Positions 53,547-62,744 of a stretch of DNA of 64,000 bases are shown in pieces. Source of the stretch: Candidatus Zipacnadum vermilionense (lineage in GTDB: Bacteria > Armatimonadota > Zipacnadia > Zipacnadales > Zipacnadaceae). The DNA is taken from assembly GCA_029821755.1 (NCBI GenBank), contig JALGSV010000004.1:1-64000 (forward strand), given 5' to 3'. The notes under the pieces are model-generated. The model was not told where the DNA came from and did no database searches. It saw nothing but the letters and a program-made list of their open reading frames with translations. Position 1 is the stretch's first letter; every line of letters starts with the position of its first letter. Position numbers and translations under genes: made by a program.

Positions 53547-54491
53547 TCAGTAATCCCTCGGGTCCATCCGCGCCCACTTGTTCTGCATGGGCTTCCAGGT
53601 GATGACGTTCTTGGCACTGGCGTAAAGCGGACCTACGCTCAGGTTCTCGTCCATCACCTTCAGGTAGATCTTGACCTCCAGCGTGTCCGGGTCGAAGCTG
53701 CCGTCTATGGTGTAGACGGCCATGCTGGGGGAGTACCACTGGCGGCGTACCGTCTTGGTGGTGGCGCCGTCGGTTACCTCGACCTTGTCTATCCGCACCG
53801 TGGTCGCCCCATCGGTGGCGGTGAAGCCCCAGAGACCCTCCGATACCGGCAGGCCAAAGACGCTGACCTGCGGGCTGTAGGTGTTCTCGCTCTGGCTGGT
53901 GAAGGTGCCTACCACCGTGCCCTCGGTGCCCAGTTGCGCCGGGTCGAAGTCGCCGGTAGCGTAGTCGTAGACGTTCTTGATGCGTTGTCCCGCGGCCAGG
54001 AGACTGCCGTTGAAGACATCACTGGCGCCCTCCTTCATTTCCACCAGGGCCACGCAGATGAGGCCGGGGGCGGCGAAGGTGCTCACCCGCGACTGACACC
54101 AGGGGCCGGGGGTGGCCGCGAGAACGAGCTGGTCCACGTCGATGTTCTGGCGGCCGGAGGTGGTCCGGTAGAGCAGGGCCAGGCTGGCGTCGAACTGACC
54201 GTACTTGAGCCGAACTCTGAACTGGCCCCTCCCGGTGCTGGTCTGCTCGAAGTCGGCCCAGGTGATAGCGTGGAAGTCGAGGCTGGCGAGGCGGCTGGTG
54301 ACCTTGGCTAGCTTTAGCTTGATCGGCGGCAGTTGCTTGGTCTGGCCCTCGGCGAGAGTGCCGGTGAGAGCGCTCTCCAGCGTGTAGTCCGTGGTCGTGG
54401 CCATGACCTGATAGCCGCGGTCGGCGGCGACGCGCTCCAGGCGGAAATGGCCCTGGGCGTCGGTACAAGCACCGCGCGGGGCTCCGTTGAG
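53547..54491 (-). pseudogene. C-terminal fragment behind an in-frame TAG
   Basis: This is the same reading frame as the 54492-57287 gene, continuing directly after its TAG stop. The sequence spans the lesion smoothly: PLAGASV, stop, then LNGAPRGACTDAQGHFRLER, which together form one carboxypeptidase-regulatory-like domain. A single CAG-to-TAG change would explain it. The rest (315 codons) is beta-rich with a C-terminal lipocalin- or CARDB-like pattern. Translation could restart at ATG 54404, but this would cut a domain in half and leave the product without a signal peptide. Confidence 0.65.
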
Positions 54492-57287
54492 CTAGACGCT
54501 GGCACCGGCAAGGGGGCGGCCGTTGGCCTCGTTCAGGACCGTGCCCTCGACGATAGCGCGTGGGCCGGGCTGCAGGCTCAGGTCCACCCGGCACTCGCCC
54601 TGGGGGCCGCGATGCACCTCCTGGGTGACTTGCGCCGGCAGGAAGGAGTAGGCGCCGGCCCGCACCGTCTGCTCGCCTGGAGGCACGTCCAGAATCTGGT
54701 AGTGCGGGCCGGTGACGTAGGTCGGGTGGTAGAAGTCCGTGTTCTGCAGGGCTACGCCTACTGTGTCCCCGGCCAGGAGAGCATCGGTGCTAGTGTCGAA
54801 GACGTCCCCGACTATGATTACCGCCTTCTCCAGGGGGAGAGTGACGGTGGTAGTCTGGTTGGCGGCAACGTTGCAGGCCGGGGCGCAGGAGGGGTAGAAG
54901 CGCGGGTCGGCCCCGGTGCGGCGGGCCTCTATGGCTTTGTTGTCGTAGGCTCCCGGCGGCACGTCCGGGATCTCCAGCACCCCGGTGGCGTCGGTCAACT
55001 GCGCCCACAGATCGCGCAGGGACACGACAGCCTTCGCGATCGGCGTAGTTCCGTCGTCCATGTCCACCACCCGCACGCGCAGCGTACCACCCGGCCCGCG
55101 GACCTTGAAGTTGATGGTGGCGGCATTGTTGGCCCGGCGGCGGTCGGCGAACTTGTCGTCGGGGTCTATCACCACGCGGAGTTGGTGGTTGCCCTCGGCG
55201 ACGGCGGTCAGGTCGACAGGGAAGTCCAGCACCGCAGCGGACAGGTCCGGTTTGCGCGCGATAGCGCCGTAGACGATGGTCTGCGCCAGCGAGCCGCTCC
55301 AGAGGTTGAGCTTGTCGTCCAGGAGGGCTATCGTGCTGCGGGCGAGCTCCTGGTTGTCCAGGAAAACGGCAACGGGGATCTCCTGGAAGAAGTCGGCCAG
55401 GCCGGGGTTGCTCACGACGAGCTGGACGTGGGTAGGTCGCTGCATGTAGCCGGCGCGCCACAGGAGGGTGTTGCTCTTGAGCTGCGGCGGCTGGGCGAGG
55501 GCCAGGTCATTGAGGCCGTAGATGGTTTTGCCGCCGACCTTCTCGCGATCGGCCTTGTTGCTGCCGTCGTAGACGATGTACTCCACCTGGGCCCCGTTGT
55601 TGTCCTCGTTGGCCTCATCGACCTGGTTGTCGGGATCCACCGCGACAGTGATCAGCTTGCGGCCCAGGCCGGTGGCGAGGTGGACGCTCTGGTTGGTGCG
55701 CGGGTAGTCGTAGGTGAGCGCAGCGGGGGCGGGGCCGGGGTCGCGGTCGAGCCGAATCCGGGGCAAGTAAAGGGTGCGCTTCTTGCCGCGGTCGAAGAGC
55801 GGCTTGCGGTGCTCACTGGTATCGGGGATGCGGATCCGTACCTGGGCATTGTCGAGCGTAGCCTCCAGCCACAGGTCGCCGTAGTACTGCGCCCCGTGGT
55901 TGGTTATCTCCACGCGTGGGCGGAGGGTATTGTAGCGCAGCCGCAGGTTCTCGCCCGGGTCGGGTTTGATCAGGGCGACCGTGAAGTCGGGCTTGGCGCC
56001 CTCGATGTCACCTCCCGCGGTAGTTGTCCCCGCATGGGGGTCTTCGGTGGAGTCGGGGCCGCCGCCGCTGACGGTGGCGTAGAAAAGACGGCGAGTATTG
56101 GCCGGAACCTCCCCGCGCTTGACCGCGCGCACCACTACGTGGGCCTTGCCACTGTGGTCGAAACACAGGTTGAGGGTCCCGGAGGCGATGCTGGAGAAGA
56201 CACACGCCTCCGTCTGGGTGCCGGGACGGATCAGGTCTAGTTCCGGCCCTGGGCCGGTGGCGTCGAGCCAGCGGAAATGTAGGGAGGGATCCCCATCGAG
56301 CCGGTAGTGGTAGGCGAGGGCCACATGGCCGTAGCCATCGCTGGCCAGGCGGAACCTATCCCGGGAGATGGTCGCCGAGGCCGGCAGGTCCACGGTGGCG
56401 GATTGCCACTGGTCCTCTCTGACGGCCCCCACCGGGGCCCAGGCTAGCTGGAGCTTGCGTTCGCGGGGGGTGGACTTCGACTCGTGCCAGGCGGCGTAGA
56501 CAAGGTGGTGCGGCCAGTCCAGAGCAAGCTGGGGGCTGGAGATGTTGTCGGGGATGCCGGAGGTCCAGGCGTGGCGGTCACCGTCAGGGGTGATGGCCCA
56601 GTTGGCCTCCACGGTGGGGTTCCTGCCGAGGGGAAGCGTCGCCACGATGGGGACACGGCGATACACTCCCAGCAGGTGCGGCACGCCCCGAGCGCCGGTG
56701 ACGAGCGAGGGGAGTGACTTCTGCGACACCACGGTAGAGAGCTTGGTCTCCTCCCACTGTCCGGCCACCTTGCGGTAGAAGCGGAAGCGGGTCTCACTAC
56801 GGGCGATAAGGGGCTCTCCGGTGGGATCGAGGGCGATAGCGGTTCCCGAGGCACCGTCGTCAGTCACCAGCTCCGGCTGGGACCAGTGTCCGTTCTGCCA
56901 GTGCCAGTAGTAGACCTTGCGGGCCCAACTGCCGGCAAAATGATAGCCGCCTGCCGGCTGTCCGGCGATCAGGTGGCGAGTCTTAAGGCTGCTAGCAGAG
57001 GTGGCTCCAGCAGGCATGGGGAGCGCTGACTGCTGCCAACCACCGGTAGCCTGGAGCACGGAGAAGAACCCCCACTTGTCGTCGGGGCCTCGCCCCAGGT
57101 ATACCACCATCACCCGCCCGGCAAGGTTGGTAGCCAGGGCGGGCGGGTCCGTCTGAGGGAGGTAGTCGGGAGCGGTGATGGGGATTAGGGTGGAGGCGGT
57201 TACTTCGGCTCGCACCGGCAGAGCGTTGGCACAAGCGACTATCAGGGCAGACAACGCGACTACGGAGGATTGCCGCATCTTTCTCAT
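54492..57287 (-). CDS. Secreted CARDB/carboxypeptidase-regulatory-domain protein, cut by in-frame TAG
   Basis: 931 residues to the TAG at 54492-54494. The signal peptide is VVALSALIVACANALPVRAE. Residues 30-420 form a predicted beta-propeller (repeated W/F-rich strands such as RVMVVYLGRGPDDKWGFFSV and HVALAYHYRLDGDPSLHFRW). CARDB-type Ig modules follow near residues 440-560 (VDPDNQVDEANEDNNGAQVE) and 620-730 (VVIDPDDKFADRRRANNAAT). Then come carboxypeptidase-regulatory-like repeats (VSLRDLWAQLTDATGVLEIP; GTVLNEANGRPLAGASV). It probably acts as a cell-surface or adhesion protein, with no catalytic residues seen. A good -10 box lies 105 bases upstream. The intact protein would have about 1246 residues. 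Confidence 0.7.
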   Translation of the reverse strand: MRKMRQSSVVALSALIVACANALPVRAEVTASTLIPITAPDYLPQTDPPALATNLAGRVMVVYLGRGPDDKWGFFSVLQATGGWQQSALPMPAGATSASSLKTRHLIAGQPAGGYHFAGSWARKVYYWHWQNGHWSQPELVTDDGASGTAIALDPTGEPLIARSETRFRFYRKVAGQWEETKLSTVVSQKSLPSLVTGARGVPHLLGVYRRVPIVATLPLGRNPTVEANWAITPDGDRHAWTSGIPDNISSPQLALDWPHHLVYAAWHESKSTPRERKLQLAWAPVGAVREDQWQSATVDLPASATISRDRFRLASDGYGHVALAYHYRLDGDPSLHFRWLDATGPGPELDLIRPGTQTEACVFSSIASGTLNLCFDHSGKAHVVVRAVKRGEVPANTRRLFYATVSGGGPDSTEDPHAGTTTAGGDIEGAKPDFTVALIKPDPGENLRLRYNTLRPRVEITNHGAQYYGDLWLEATLDNAQVRIRIPDTSEHRKPLFDRGKKRTLYLPRIRLDRDPGPAPAALTYDYPRTNQSVHLATGLGRKLITVAVDPDNQVDEANEDNNGAQVEYIVYDGSNKADREKVGGKTIYGLNDLALAQPPQLKSNTLLWRAGYMQRPTHVQLVVSNPGLADFFQEIPVAVFLDNQELARSTIALLDDKLNLWSGSLAQTIVYGAIARKPDLSAAVLDFPVDLTAVAEGNHQLRVVIDPDDKFADRRRANNAATINFKVRGPGGTLRVRVVDMDDGTTPIAKAVVSLRDLWAQLTDATGVLEIPDVPPGAYDNKAIEARRTGADPRFYPSCAPACNVAANQTTTVTLPLEKAVIIVGDVFDTSTDALLAGDTVGVALQNTDFYHPTYVTGPHYQILDVPPGEQTVRAGAYSFLPAQVTQEVHRGPQGECRVDLSLQPGPRAIVEGTVLNEANGRPLAGASV

Positions 57288-57391
57288 CCTCTCGGCCTAG
57301 ACTGGCTTTTCAGTTGCCTCCAAGACAGCGGTATTGCGGGGTTCGCCGACGGTGGAGGATGAGGGCGGCGGACCGTCCCCAAACTAAATTT

Positions 57392-57421
57392 ATTATACCC
57401 CATCTCGTAGAGAACGCGCAA
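57392..57421 (-). promoter_or_regulatory. Promoter of the CARDB-type gene
   Basis: On the minus strand TATAAT (57392-57397) is a perfect -10 box. TTGCGC (57416-57421) at 18-base spacing is a weak -35. The leader to ATG 57287 would be about 98 bases. Confidence 0.55.
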
Positions 57422-57584
57422 TCAATAATTCTATCTGTTAGTGCCCTGCTTCTTGAGTGAACCGCTGGCAACGGCAGCCGGGTATAGCGGGAGGACAGGA
57501 CTCGCCGTGGACTTCGTGTACAGCTCATCGCAGCCTCTCCCGCAGTCGCGTCACCGGCAAGTCAAAGCTAGATGCTGCGACCGA

Positions 57585-58258
57585 CTATCGTGTCGGTTTT
57601 CTCACAGCGATGCCGGCGCGCTGCTCGCAGCGCTGGGCGTTATCGTTCATGACGGCCTGGGCCCAGGACGCGCCCAGTCGTTGGGTAAGGCGCGCGGCGA
57701 GGGCGCGGAGCTTCTCCGTCGCTGGCAAGACCCGGCGCGCTGGGGGTGAAGGGTTCGGGCGCGCGGCAGAGCTGGGCCGCGAAGGGGTAGTCAAGCCCGG
57801 CCAGCACGCGATCCTGCAAGAGCCCCGGCCAGATCCCACGAGGCCAGATTGTCCACGCACATCCCGGCGGAGCTGTCGAAATCGCCCAGGGCGAGGTAGA
57901 CGTTCGGGGAGGAATGGGCCGCGATAAGCGCCTCCCGCCAGAAGAAGCTGCCGCCGTGGAGCGCGACCAGGGGCAGATCGGGACGAGCCCGGACGATGCG
58001 CTCCAACTCCAGCGGGTGGTAGTCCAGGGACACACCTTGTCCAGGGACAGCCGAGTCGGGCGCGGGGACGCTGCCAGTGTGGAAGAGGACCGGCAGGCCC
58101 AGGCGCTGGGCCCCGCGGTAGTAGGGGAGGGGGGGCTCGTTATCGCCATAGTAAGGACCGGTGACACCGAAGAGCCAGACGTGATCCACGACGGCGCGGT
58201 ACTCGGCGACCAGGCGGTCAATCTGCTCCGGCGCGCACCAATCGGTGGCCAGGTGCAT
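57585..58258 (-). pseudogene. Decayed amidohydrolase (Amidohydro_2 type)
   Basis: Three frames must be joined to read one protein. Frame 1 (58258 to about 57830): MHLATDWCAPEQIDRLVAEY, LPVLFHTGSVPAPDSA, then LVALHGGSFFWREALIAA and DFDSSAGMCVDNLASWDLAG. Frame 2: LLQDRVLAGLDYPFAAQLCR. Frame 3: EKLRALAARLTQRLGASWAQ then AVMNDNAQRCEQRAGI, stop at 57585. The order matches a metal-dependent TIM-barrel hydrolase of the amidohydrolase-2 family, with the DxHxH-like start visible as IDCHMH just upstream of the ATG. There is no good start codon before that motif. Two frameshifts and a lost start argue for true decay rather than one sequencing error. Confidence 0.72.
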
Positions 58259-58278
58259 ATGGCAGTCAATCCAAATCT

Positions 58279-58880
58279 TTACTCCTCAATGTGAAAGGGC
58301 TTCATCGGGCGTGTCACGGAGGGCATTCTGGCGATGCACTGATGGAAGGTGACGCCTTCCCTGCCAACTTCGATGTGTCGGAAGATCGCGCGCAAGAACT
58401 GGAGCTGAACGTTGGCGGGCTGCCCCCTCAAGGCGGCCACGAACCGGGCCGGGCTAATACCTGCCATTCGCGCCAAGGCGTCGGCGTACCGCCGGAGAGC
58501 GGCGTCGACCTTGGGCAATCGAAGTTGGACGGGAGCGCCCGAGTCTTGCCCTCGATCTCCCTTTGGTGCTGCGCCAGGGCTTCTTGGAGGGTGCCCTCGA
58601 GGAGGTTCGCCACGCACCCCCATACATACTCCTCGGTGGCTTCCGCTGGCACGGTCGCGCCGCGGCGCCGATCCTCGTTGCACTGGGAAAGCTGGTGGCT
58701 ACAGGCATAGTGATACCACCTGCACGATGGGCGAATAGTGACCCGTCACCCCATGTGCGACCCACAAACGACGCAGTGCAGAATGGGGGAGAGGCTTTGC
58801 ATCCGTGCCCTGGGGCGTATGTCGCGGTTGGCGTGCAGCCGCACTTGGTACAGGCGCCGCTGCTGGGGAGTGAACAAAAC
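58279..58880 (-). pseudogene. Decayed large serine recombinase (C-terminal zinc-ribbon part)
   Basis: Reading the minus strand from about 58880: FTPQQRRLYQVRLHANRD, then LSPILHCVVCGSHMG, an in-frame TGA, then RWYHYACSHQLSQCNEDRRR and VPAEATEEYVWGCVANLLEG. This is the recombinase zinc beta-ribbon (CxxC...C...C) and the following coiled coil of large serine recombinases. A frameshift then leads to PKVDAALRRYADALARMAG and a C-terminal FLRAIFRHIEVGREGVTF, ending at TAA 58279. The catalytic resolvase domain and the rest of the N-terminus are gone. This is the scar of an integrative element. Bases 58881-59002 beyond it contain nothing I can identify. Confidence 0.7.
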
Positions 58881-59002
58881 AGGAAGCAGAGGTCAGAACG
58901 GAGGGGGATGATCGGGCTGGGAGGAGAAGCTAATGCTCTAGGGAGTGCTTTGTAACCGCGGTCTCCGGGCCCGCCAGACGTGGTGGATCCGGGGGAGGGA
59001 GC

Positions 59003-61345
59003 CTACGGCTCCGCCCGCACGATCTGGAAGGGGATGGCGGGCAAGACGCCGAGGGAGAGGCGTTGCGTGCGTAGGCCGGACTGGACGCCGAGGCCGGGGG
59101 GAGGCGGCACGGTCGCCTCGATGATGAGGTTGCCGGTGTCGCCCGGGAGGGCGGAGTTGGCGTCGGCCTTGAGGGTCAGGGTGACGCCGGTGGGTGCGAA
59201 CTGCGTGGTCTGCAGCCGTACGCCCCGGGGATGGTTGCACAGAGTGAAGCCGACCGTCTGGAGTGGGGACTGCAGGCGATTGGGCAACGTCTGGGGGGCG
59301 GTGACCTGGACCTGGACCGTGCCGCCTAGGGGTATGCGGACCGCCTGGGCGTCGGCCAGCGAAATCCCCGGCACCAGGGGGCGCCAGACGACCGGCACGC
59401 ACCGGGAGCCGGTGACCGCGACCAGGAGTTCCTGCTGCGGCACGAGATGCCGGTAGAGAAAGGCCTGCATCATGTCTTCCGCGGGCACCGCCGGGCGAGT
59501 GATCGGGACGCCGCCGATCTGGGCGCGCCCCTCCAGCCGCACCGGTGACAACTGGGAAGGCGCGTCTCGGGGGGCGCGGAGCGTCACTTGGACCGAGTCC
59601 TTACCGCTGGGGATGCGCGCTGGGCTGAGCGTGAAGCCGGCGGGGGCGTCCTTGAGCACAATGTCTATGTCGCCGTCGAATCCGTCCTTGCGCAGCGCGT
59701 GGACGGTGGCGGAGGCCGGCCGCCGGGCGAGCATGGTGAGGCTGGACGGGGTCACGCGCAGGGCGAAGTCGGGCTGCGCCGGCCGGAGCTGCAAGCGGTA
59801 ACCGTACTCGTCACCCCCGTGGCGCTGCGCGTCGCAGAGGTACACGCGGTAGGTCCCGTCCGTGGGGAGTTTCACGCGCACGTACGGGTCGGCCTGGTGC
59901 GTGACCAGGCCCCACTCCGGGTCGTTATGGTCGTCGTTGGCGGCGACTACCGCCCCCGTCGAGTCCACCAGCCGCAGTGCCGCGTCCAGCGGGGAATCCA
60001 GGCGGCGAGCCCACACCTCAGCCACTAGCTCCTCGCCGGCTCGACCGTCGAACCCGAAGACGTCCACGTCACCGGGGCTACCGATGCGGCCATTGATGGT
60101 CTGCGGGAACGCTACCTGTTGGGCCTGGTCGGTGGTGTCGTTCGGCTCGGTCTCGTTGCACTCGGGTTGCGCCGCCACGACGTAGGGGACCTGGTTGCTC
60201 AGCCCGGGGCCCCCGCCGACCTCGGCCTGGCGGAGGACGTCGCCGCCGGGCTGCGTGTCCAGTGGCAGCGTCTGGGTGGGCAGGTTCCAGCCCCCAATCT
60301 CAGCCACCGTAGGCGTGCCGCTCGGACCGCCCAGGGGGAACATCCGCGTGATGAAGGGCAGCTCCCCCACGGCCATGCGATACACGAAGTCCTCCCGGCC
60401 GCGGAAGATGGCATCGCGGATCTCCAGCCCATACACGCCGTCCGCGGGCACTACGTAGCAGAGCACGGGGTCGGGGTCGAAGCGGTAGTCGTCGTCGCAG
60501 GCCACTTCGTTGCCCTGCGGGTCGTAGAGGGAGACTATGGCCTGGAACCAGCCGGGGACGGCATCGGCCAGATACGGGAGTAGTTGCCGGGCCTGCACCC
60601 GGATCACGAGCTGCTGGCCCTTCTGCGCCCGCAGGCGGAAGTGATCCGCCTCGCCGGGCATGATCTGGCCGTTCAGCACCACGGGAAGGTCTACCGGTGA
60701 CCCACCGAGATCCCCGGGACCGACGACGTCCTCCTCGCGGACCTCCGCCAGCCCGCCCACCTGGAAACGCATGGGGTTGGTGAGACCATTGGCCGTCACC
60801 AGGCGCAACTCGCGGTCACCAGGCGCGGCGCTGGGGTCTATGGTGACCTCGATCTCCACCCGCTCGGCGATCTGCGCATTGGGTTGCTTCTTGGGGTCGA
60901 AGAGCGTCGCCCGTAGGCGGGCCACTTCCCGGACGCTCTGCTCATCCAGGTCCCGCAGCCAGGGATGGTCGGGCAGCGGGGGCTTGTCCCGCGACTGCGC
61001 GCGGGCGGCTGCGATGGCTCGGGCGCTCCACCGCCGCTTCACCATGTCCCGCATGAACCTCCACGTTTCTCCCAGTTCCTGGTCAGTGAGGGGCCGAATA
61101 TACTCGACGACAGACGCGCTCACCCCCGTGCCGGAGACGTGGACATCCACGGGGTCTCGGAGGAGCTGACCGCCCACGGTGACCCGCACGACGCTCCCCT
61201 GCTGGCCGCCGGCGGGGTAGACATAGCCCAGGTGCGGTCCGCTCTGTCCCCAGGCGCTCGCCAGGCAGGCAACGAGCGCGATTGTCACCCAGCCCGTGCA
61301 CCGCGCCCGACTCACGTGAGTTCCGAGTCGGTCCATGTCTGTCAT
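59003..61345 (-). CDS. Secreted PPC (pre-peptidase C-terminal) domain protein
   Basis: 780 residues. After a short lead, the signal peptide is WVTIALVACLASAWG. IPT/TIG-like start: HLGYVYPAGGQQGSVVRVTV. Two PPC domains follow: near residues 310-410 (LNGQIMPGEADHFRLRAQKG; LVIRVQARQLLPYLADAVPG) and near 490-620 (PQTINGRIGSPGDVDVFGFD; LVAEVWARRLDSPLDAALRL). The end is Ig-like. The type occurs beside DUF1501 and DUF1549/1553 genes in planctomycetes and relatives; its function is unknown, presumably cell-surface binding or a scaffold. ATG 61345 lies five bases after the DUF1501 stop, so the two are co-transcribed. The frame extends to 61678 inside the DUF1501 gene and that extension is rejected. 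Confidence 0.82.
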   Translation of the reverse strand: MTDMDRLGTHVSRARCTGWVTIALVACLASAWGQSGPHLGYVYPAGGQQGSVVRVTVGGQLLRDPVDVHVSGTGVSASVVEYIRPLTDQELGETWRFMRDMVKRRWSARAIAAARAQSRDKPPLPDHPWLRDLDEQSVREVARLRATLFDPKKQPNAQIAERVEIEVTIDPSAAPGDRELRLVTANGLTNPMRFQVGGLAEVREEDVVGPGDLGGSPVDLPVVLNGQIMPGEADHFRLRAQKGQQLVIRVQARQLLPYLADAVPGWFQAIVSLYDPQGNEVACDDDYRFDPDPVLCYVVPADGVYGLEIRDAIFRGREDFVYRMAVGELPFITRMFPLGGPSGTPTVAEIGGWNLPTQTLPLDTQPGGDVLRQAEVGGGPGLSNQVPYVVAAQPECNETEPNDTTDQAQQVAFPQTINGRIGSPGDVDVFGFDGRAGEELVAEVWARRLDSPLDAALRLVDSTGAVVAANDDHNDPEWGLVTHQADPYVRVKLPTDGTYRVYLCDAQRHGGDEYGYRLQLRPAQPDFALRVTPSSLTMLARRPASATVHALRKDGFDGDIDIVLKDAPAGFTLSPARIPSGKDSVQVTLRAPRDAPSQLSPVRLEGRAQIGGVPITRPAVPAEDMMQAFLYRHLVPQQELLVAVTGSRCVPVVWRPLVPGISLADAQAVRIPLGGTVQVQVTAPQTLPNRLQSPLQTVGFTLCNHPRGVRLQTTQFAPTGVTLTLKADANSALPGDTGNLIIEATVPPPPGLGVQSGLRTQRLSLGVLPAIPFQIVRAEP

Positions 61346-61350
61346 AAGGT

Positions 61351-62697
61351 CTACATGATCTCCCGCAAACGGCCAGTTCCCTCGGCCGGGCTGCCCTCCG
61401 ACGGCATCAGCTTCAGGTCCAGGCCTCGCGAATTGGGCATCGGGCCCTCCGGGTCGATCCCCATCAGCTCCAGAATGCTGCCCAGCAAGTCTCGCGGATA
61501 CACCGGCCGCTGTGCCACTTGCTCGCCCCTGGCGTCCGAGGCGCCGACGACACGGCCGCCCTTGAACCCCCCACCGGCCACCACGGCGGAGAAGCACGCC
61601 CCATAGTGGCTGCGGCCGCCGTTCCAGGGCGGCTGCCAGTCTACCTTCGGGGTCCGCCCGAACTCCCCGCTCCACCACACGATGGTGCTGTCGAGTAGGT
61701 CGTGGTCGGCCAGATCCTGCAACAACGTGGCCATGCCCTTGTCCATCTCGGGCAGCTTCCGGCGCATCGCCTGGAAGTGCTGCTTGTGGGTATCCCAGCC
61801 CCCGTAGTTGATGGTGACGTACGGTACGCCGGCCTCCACCAGGCGGCGCGCCATCAGGCAGGACTGGCCGAAGGTGTTACGGCCATACCGATCGCGAAGG
61901 GCGTCCTCTTCCTGTGACAGGTCGAATAGCTTCCCCGCATCGCCCAGGATCATCTCGTAGGCCTTTTCTCGATACGCGCCGAGTTTGGCGAACTGCGGGA
62001 GGCCGGGCATCAACTGCTGGAGCAGGTCGAGCGAACTTCGCAGCTCGGCGCGTCCGCGCTGGCGCTCGTCGGTGATGCCCTCTGAGACGACCCCTTCCAC
62101 GACGAAGCGCTTCGCATTCGGATCCCCGCCGGTGGCGAAGGGCTTGTACCGCGGCCCCAGGAAACCGGCCTCGTCGAAACGGCCCTGCGGCGCGGTTAGC
62201 ACGATATAGGGCGGGACGAGGCCGGTGTAGCCGCCCTCGTATCCCTTGAGCCGGGAGACGAGGGCCCCGAGGGCGGGGTACACCAGTCGCTCCCCGGGCT
62301 GGTGGCCGGTCTGGACGAGGTACGCCGCGGTCTCGTGGCCGTTGTTGCCGTGGGTCATACTGCGGATGATGGAGTACTTGTCGGCTTGCTGCGCGAGCTG
62401 CGGCAGCAACTGGCCGATGCTGATCCCCGGTACGTTGGTCTCAATCGGCTTGTTGAAAGGACCGCAATAGTCGTAGCCTGCCTCCGGCTTGGGGTCGAAG
62501 GTGTCCAGGTGCGGCGGCCCGCCCCACAGCCAGACCTGGATGACCGACTTGGCCTGGGCAACCAGCGGCTCGGGGGCGGTGGTCTCCTGCGCCCCTGCCG
62601 CGGTGCAGGTGAGAAGCATCACTCCTGTGAGCCACACCAGGCCCAGCACCAGGGGCAGGCGTCGCGTAGTGGCTGCAGCAACTTGTACACCTTTCAT
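61351..62697 (-). CDS. DUF1501 family exported protein
   Basis: 448 residues. The signal peptide (LPLVLGLVWLTGVMLLTCTAAG) is followed by the family hallmark VIQVWLWGGPPHLDTFDPKP near residue 50. Further conserved segments are RSMTHGNNGHETAAYLVQTG, RRLVEAGVPYVTINYGGWDT-H, MDKGMATLLQDLADHDLLD, VVWWSGEFGRTPK and GGRSHYGACFSAVVAGGGFK-GG. The fold is alkaline-phosphatase/sulfatase-like; the activity is unproven. The TAT-type RR start seen in many DUF1501 proteins is absent; a normal Sec signal is present. ATG 62697 has AAGGGAGA upstream; an in-frame ATG at 62718 lies too close to the preceding gene. It lies 47 bases downstream of the DUF1549/1553 gene. Confidence 0.9.
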   Translation of the reverse strand: MKGVQVAAATTRRLPLVLGLVWLTGVMLLTCTAAGAQETTAPEPLVAQAKSVIQVWLWGGPPHLDTFDPKPEAGYDYCGPFNKPIETNVPGISIGQLLPQLAQQADKYSIIRSMTHGNNGHETAAYLVQTGHQPGERLVYPALGALVSRLKGYEGGYTGLVPPYIVLTAPQGRFDEAGFLGPRYKPFATGGDPNAKRFVVEGVVSEGITDERQRGRAELRSSLDLLQQLMPGLPQFAKLGAYREKAYEMILGDAGKLFDLSQEEDALRDRYGRNTFGQSCLMARRLVEAGVPYVTINYGGWDTHKQHFQAMRRKLPEMDKGMATLLQDLADHDLLDSTIVWWSGEFGRTPKVDWQPPWNGGRSHYGACFSAVVAGGGFKGGRVVGASDARGEQVAQRPVYPRDLLGSILELMGIDPEGPMPNSRGLDLKLMPSEGSPAEGTGRLREIM

Positions 62698-62744
62698 GGA
62701 TTCTCCCTTGCCTCTCATGGCTCAGACACGTCCCGCATCCGCCT

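What the first reader, a model, noticed from the sequence alone, without database searches (positions are those of the whole stretch)
57585..58880. Adjacent fossils of an amidohydrolase and a large serine recombinase
Both genes need two or more frame corrections to be read. The recombinase stop (TAA 58279) lies right before the amidohydrolase start region, so the two were neighbours on one strand when they were intact. Only the zinc-ribbon end of the recombinase remains. This marks an old insertion of a mobile element.
Basis: partly seen in the sequence, partly recalled or inferred. Interest (0 to 1): 0.6.

Follow-up and report, generated by a model that had tools for sequence, protein, structure and literature searches.

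The report
Two dead genes side by side
A stretch of an Armatimonadota bacterium's genome carries the broken remains of a metabolic enzyme gene (an amidohydrolase) next to the tail end of a broken DNA-integrating enzyme (a serine recombinase); this is ordinary genome decay, one of at least four such recombinase remains in this genome.

Summary
On the minus strand, 58276-57609 is an amidohydrolase (Pfam Amidohydro_2) pseudogene. It is 70% identical (156/222 aa) to an intact 275-aa gene in another Armatimonadota genome (MAG DeMMO6_22). It has lost its start (ATT for ATG) and 51 internal residues, and carries two +1 frameshifts. Differences at codon positions 1/2/3 are 20/15/54%, so it was under selection until fairly recently.

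Upstream, 58892-58279 is the C-terminal part of a large serine recombinase: zinc ribbon, coiled coil and tail. It has an in-frame TGA, a frameshift, a probable internal deletion and no catalytic or Recombinase domain. A profile of 21 intact recombinases ranks its two segments first and second among 1456 window segments; read together, E 5e-10, best of 1000 shuffles 0.05.

"Old mobile-element insertion" is only partly supported. A recombinase was here, but no att site, terminal repeat, other element gene or empty site was found. The amidohydrolase is probably not element cargo, and its decay looks recent. The same genome holds a near-full-length recombinase pseudogene, two further C-terminal stubs and one intact copy. 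Ordinary decay; low interest.

The parts
57609..58276 (-). Amidohydrolase (Amidohydro_2, PF04909) pseudogene: ATT at the start position, 51-residue internal in-frame deletion near 58142-58150, +1 frameshifts near 57823 and 57732
   Evidence: 70% identity to the intact gene of G148 / DeMMO6_22; Pfam E 2.8e-11 for the corrected read
58279..58892 (-). C-terminal remnant of a large serine recombinase: zinc beta ribbon (about 58790-58650), coiled coil, C-terminal tail; one in-frame TGA (58746-58748), one frame change near 58530-58558, probable deletion in the coiled coil; N-terminal catalytic and Recombinase domains absent
   Evidence: profile of 21 intact recombinases; similarity to other fossils of the same genome
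58279..58281 (-). TAA ending the recombinase reading frame, 2 nt before the amidohydrolase start position; the GAGGAG before it sits where the amidohydrolase ribosome-binding site would be
   Evidence: sequence

Best explanation
Two unrelated dead genes lie in tandem in a decaying stretch between two host genes. (1) The amidohydrolase was a working chromosomal metabolic gene, shared with a distant Armatimonadota lineage. It was lost here by a start-codon change, a 51-codon deletion and two single-base insertions (lesions shown; the order of events is not known). (2) The recombinase piece is the 3' end of an integrase-type large serine recombinase, left when the rest of its element was deleted (inferred). 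In life such an enzyme would integrate or excise a mobile element by serine-mediated strand exchange between att sites; this piece has no catalytic domain and presumably does nothing now. That the recombinase stop lies 2 nt from the amidohydrolase start is most simply a deletion or insertion junction, not an operon (inferred).
For: Amidohydrolase alignment and lesions; its close relative is intact in 1 of the 291 phylum genomes searched and not found in the genus or family. Recombinase profile result. Further remains in the same genome: near-full-length broken copy at C18:57808-59232, whose read-through gives Resolvase E 4e-18 and Recombinase E 1e-12; C-terminal stubs at C53:379224 (58% over 29 aa) and C73:23885; one intact copy at C18:82806-84341. 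None of those has an amidohydrolase next to it, and the intact amidohydrolase's neighbours are ordinary metabolic-type genes.
Against: The 2-nt spacing with a good ribosome-binding sequence inside the last recombinase codons could reflect a real tandem arrangement or insertion at the amidohydrolase's 5' end. No direct evidence dates the recombinase relative to the amidohydrolase. Read data are not held, so single-base errors cannot be excluded lesion by lesion.
Confidence: 0.8

Rival explanations
1. One reading: both genes belonged to one integrated mobile element (recombinase plus amidohydrolase cargo), or the element inserted at an attachment site at the amidohydrolase's 5' end and so ended up adjacent.
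For: Same strand, 2-nt spacing; the amidohydrolase is patchily distributed (an intact close relative in one other family, absent from the genus and family genomes searched); three of four recombinase remains in this genome keep only the 3' end, as if that end lay at the element's edge.
Against: No att site or terminal repeat, no tRNA nearby, no other element genes seen between 57.3 and 59.0 kb; the intact amidohydrolase has no recombinase beside it; no match to the recombinase piece in phage, plasmid or viral collections, though those searches see only fairly close relatives of a fast-evolving tail.
Confidence: 0.15
2. Assembly or sequencing errors split two intact genes.
For: The amidohydrolase frameshifts are single-base; the genome is a 115-contig draft.
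Against: A 51-residue deletion, a missing start codon, loss of the whole recombinase N-terminal half and a missing coiled-coil stretch are not read errors; many long neighbouring ORFs are intact.
Confidence: 0.04

Closest known systems
Large serine recombinase / serine integrase family (Resolvase PF00239 + Recombinase PF07508 + Zn_ribbon_recom PF13408 + coiled coil)
   Same: Zinc ribbon with Cys-x2-Cys ... Cys ... Cys, following coiled coil and tail, in the right order; a related fossil with the catalytic domain elsewhere in the genome
   Different: N-terminal catalytic and Recombinase domains absent, stop and frameshift: a dead C-terminal fragment
Amidohydrolase of Armatimonadetes bacterium DeMMO6_22 (JAGUZN010000158.1; Amidohydro_2 family)
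   Same: 70% amino-acid identity over the aligned residues, from start to near the end of the gene
   Different: Window copy lacks the start codon and 51 residues and has two frameshifts

Membership tests
Large serine recombinase | Resolvase-type N-terminal catalytic domain | tested here: not met
   No such sequence upstream of 58892 before the next gene (59003); present in the related C18 fossil
Large serine recombinase | Recombinase zinc beta ribbon | tested here: inconclusive
   15.8 bits, E 0.018, under Pfam's cut-off, but four cysteines in place and a profile of relatives gives E 5e-10 for the whole C-terminal read
Large serine recombinase | Coiled coil and C-terminal tail after the ribbon | tested here: met
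   Similar to the C18 fossil (25% over the gapped C-terminal alignment, E 2e-5 in a small database) and to the C53:379 fossil (59% over 29 aa)
Amidohydrolase 2 (PF04909) | Pfam match above cut-off | tested here: met
   44.2 bits vs cut-off 26.4 for the corrected read; 39.2 bits for the longest single-frame piece
Amidohydrolase 2 (PF04909) | Complete open reading frame | tested here: not met
   Start lost, 51-aa deletion, two frameshifts
Integrated mobile element | Attachment sites / terminal repeats and an empty site in relatives | tested here: inconclusive
   No direct repeats of 14 nt or more in 57280-59010; in the sister genome examined the two flanking genes lie on different contigs with other neighbours, so no empty site can be read

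The most novel reading that the evidence does not exclude
In this lineage, elements carrying large serine recombinases are repeatedly lost by deletions that spare the recombinase's 3' end, because that end lies at the element's edge. Three of the four recombinase fossils found in this genome keep only the C-terminus, although the N-terminus is easier to detect.
Probability: 0.15. Interest if true: 0.3.

Novelty: new member of a known kind. Interest (0 to 1): 0.15.

Why it matters
Little beyond annotation: gene callers would list misleading short ORFs here. It records that this Armatimonadota genome has hosted, and mostly lost, large serine recombinases, and gives an example of a gene loss that the codon-position pattern shows to be recent.

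Tried and rejected
Relatives of the recombinase piece in genome contigs, viral contigs, phages, plasmids and the PDB: none. An empty site in sister genomes: G001 has homologues of both flanking genes but on separate contigs with different neighbours. DNA similarity across 57300-59000 in 60 relatives: only short matches. TGA recoding, considered because several fossils are interrupted by TGA: rejected, since 14 of 32 long window ORFs end at TGA. Inverted repeats I1/I2: short, 88%, treated as chance. A first profile built with too strict a motif filter (only 6 recombinases) missed the window fossil; the wider one of 21 found it. Literature searches gave nothing on this locus.

Full report
Check of the observation. 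Translating the minus strand in all frames shows the two reading frames described. For the amidohydrolase, the best relative is an intact 275-aa protein in G148, which the genome collection names as Armatimonadetes bacterium DeMMO6_22. A frameshift-tolerant alignment runs from 58276 to 57609 with 156 of 222 aligned residues identical. It shows a 51-residue gap, one extra base near 57823 and one near 57732. The start codon of the relative (ATG, M-Y-I-D-C-H-M-H) is matched by ATT (I-W-I-D-C-H-M-H), and no ATG, GTG or TTG lies between it and the preceding in-frame stop. The gene is therefore broken in at least four ways.

When the amidohydrolase decayed. Over 211 aligned codons the two genes differ at 20%, 15% and 54% of first, second and third positions. 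That is the pattern of purifying selection, so most of the divergence arose while both copies worked; the loss here is recent compared with the split. The count is over both lineages and says nothing about absolute time.

The recombinase. Single-frame pieces match no Pfam or NCBIfam recombinase family, and the corrected read matches Zn_ribbon_recom only weakly (E 0.018). A better test used 21 intact serine-recombinase ORFs: those of Armatimonadota genomes found by homology to the C18 or window fossils, plus the intact copy of this genome. Their profile, run over 1456 six-frame segments of the window, ranks 58749-58892 first and 58431-58745 second, in consecutive profile positions; the corrected read has E 5e-10 and the best of 1000 shuffles 0.05. 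Four of the 21 entered because the corrected read itself had hit them, weakly, so the test is not wholly independent of that read; the six-frame ranking and the similarity to the C18 and C53:379 fossils point the same way. The segment is thus the C-terminal part of a large serine recombinase.

Other remains in the same genome. C18:57808-59232 (minus) is a near-full-length recombinase broken by frame changes and a stop, with part of the zinc ribbon gone; its read-through matches Resolvase (E 4e-18) and Recombinase (E 1e-12). It shares with the window piece a 78-bp stretch of 75% DNA identity and the motif ANRDIRPRARMQSLSP / LSRNIHPKARGGSLSP. C53:379224-379313 and C73:23885-24085 are C-terminal stubs only. 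C18:82806-84341 is intact, 512 aa. So the window piece is one of at least four fossils; three of them keep only the C-terminus. With four cases this is a hint, not a result.

Were they neighbours? The recombinase frame ends at TAA 58281-58279, and the amidohydrolase start position is 58276. GAGGAG, the last two recombinase codons, is where the amidohydrolase's ribosome-binding site should be. Either the junction fell just upstream of the amidohydrolase or the two stood in tandem. Against a lasting unit: the intact amidohydrolase sits among other genes without a recombinase, and the other recombinase remains sit beside a peroxiredoxin-like gene (C18), a uroporphyrinogen-decarboxylase-like gene (C53:379) and unidentified genes (C73). 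Those neighbour names are my reading of the translations, not database matches.

Mobile element? The recombinase makes an element likely (established knowledge of large serine recombinases), but nothing else of an element was found: no direct repeats, no tRNA, no further genes in the gap. The sister genome G001 has homologues of both flanking genes (67% and 56% identity), but each lies on its own contig beside other genes, so no empty site can be read.

Surroundings. The flanking gene at 57287-53547 is itself interrupted by a TAG (54494-54492) where the G001 protein has Trp, with the frame conserved on both sides. Three broken genes in a row suggest a locally relaxed stretch.

Verdict: observation confirmed; interpretation partly supported; ordinary pseudogenes, low interest.

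Noticed in passing
window 53547-57287 (-): The gene downstream (CARDB / CarboxypepD_reg domains) is interrupted by one TAG at 54492-54494 where the same-genus homologue (G001, 1252 aa) has Trp; reading frame conserved on both sides, so a third, recently broken gene or a base error.
   Followed up: partly
L013 (G000:C18:57808-59232), L015 (G000:C53:379224-379313), L087 (G000:C73:23885-24085): Three more large serine recombinase fossils in the same genome, two of them C-terminal stubs only; an intact 512-aa copy lies at C18:82806-84341 (L014).
   Followed up: yes
window 57492-57535 and G000:C38:131446-131489 (L012): 44-bp match outside recognisable genes, 82% identical; possibly a small repeat.
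   Followed up: no
window 59003-61678 (-): The 891-aa ORF probably starts further in: most homologues begin to match around residue 125-135, and its first part overlaps the neighbouring gene at 61351-62718.
   Followed up: no
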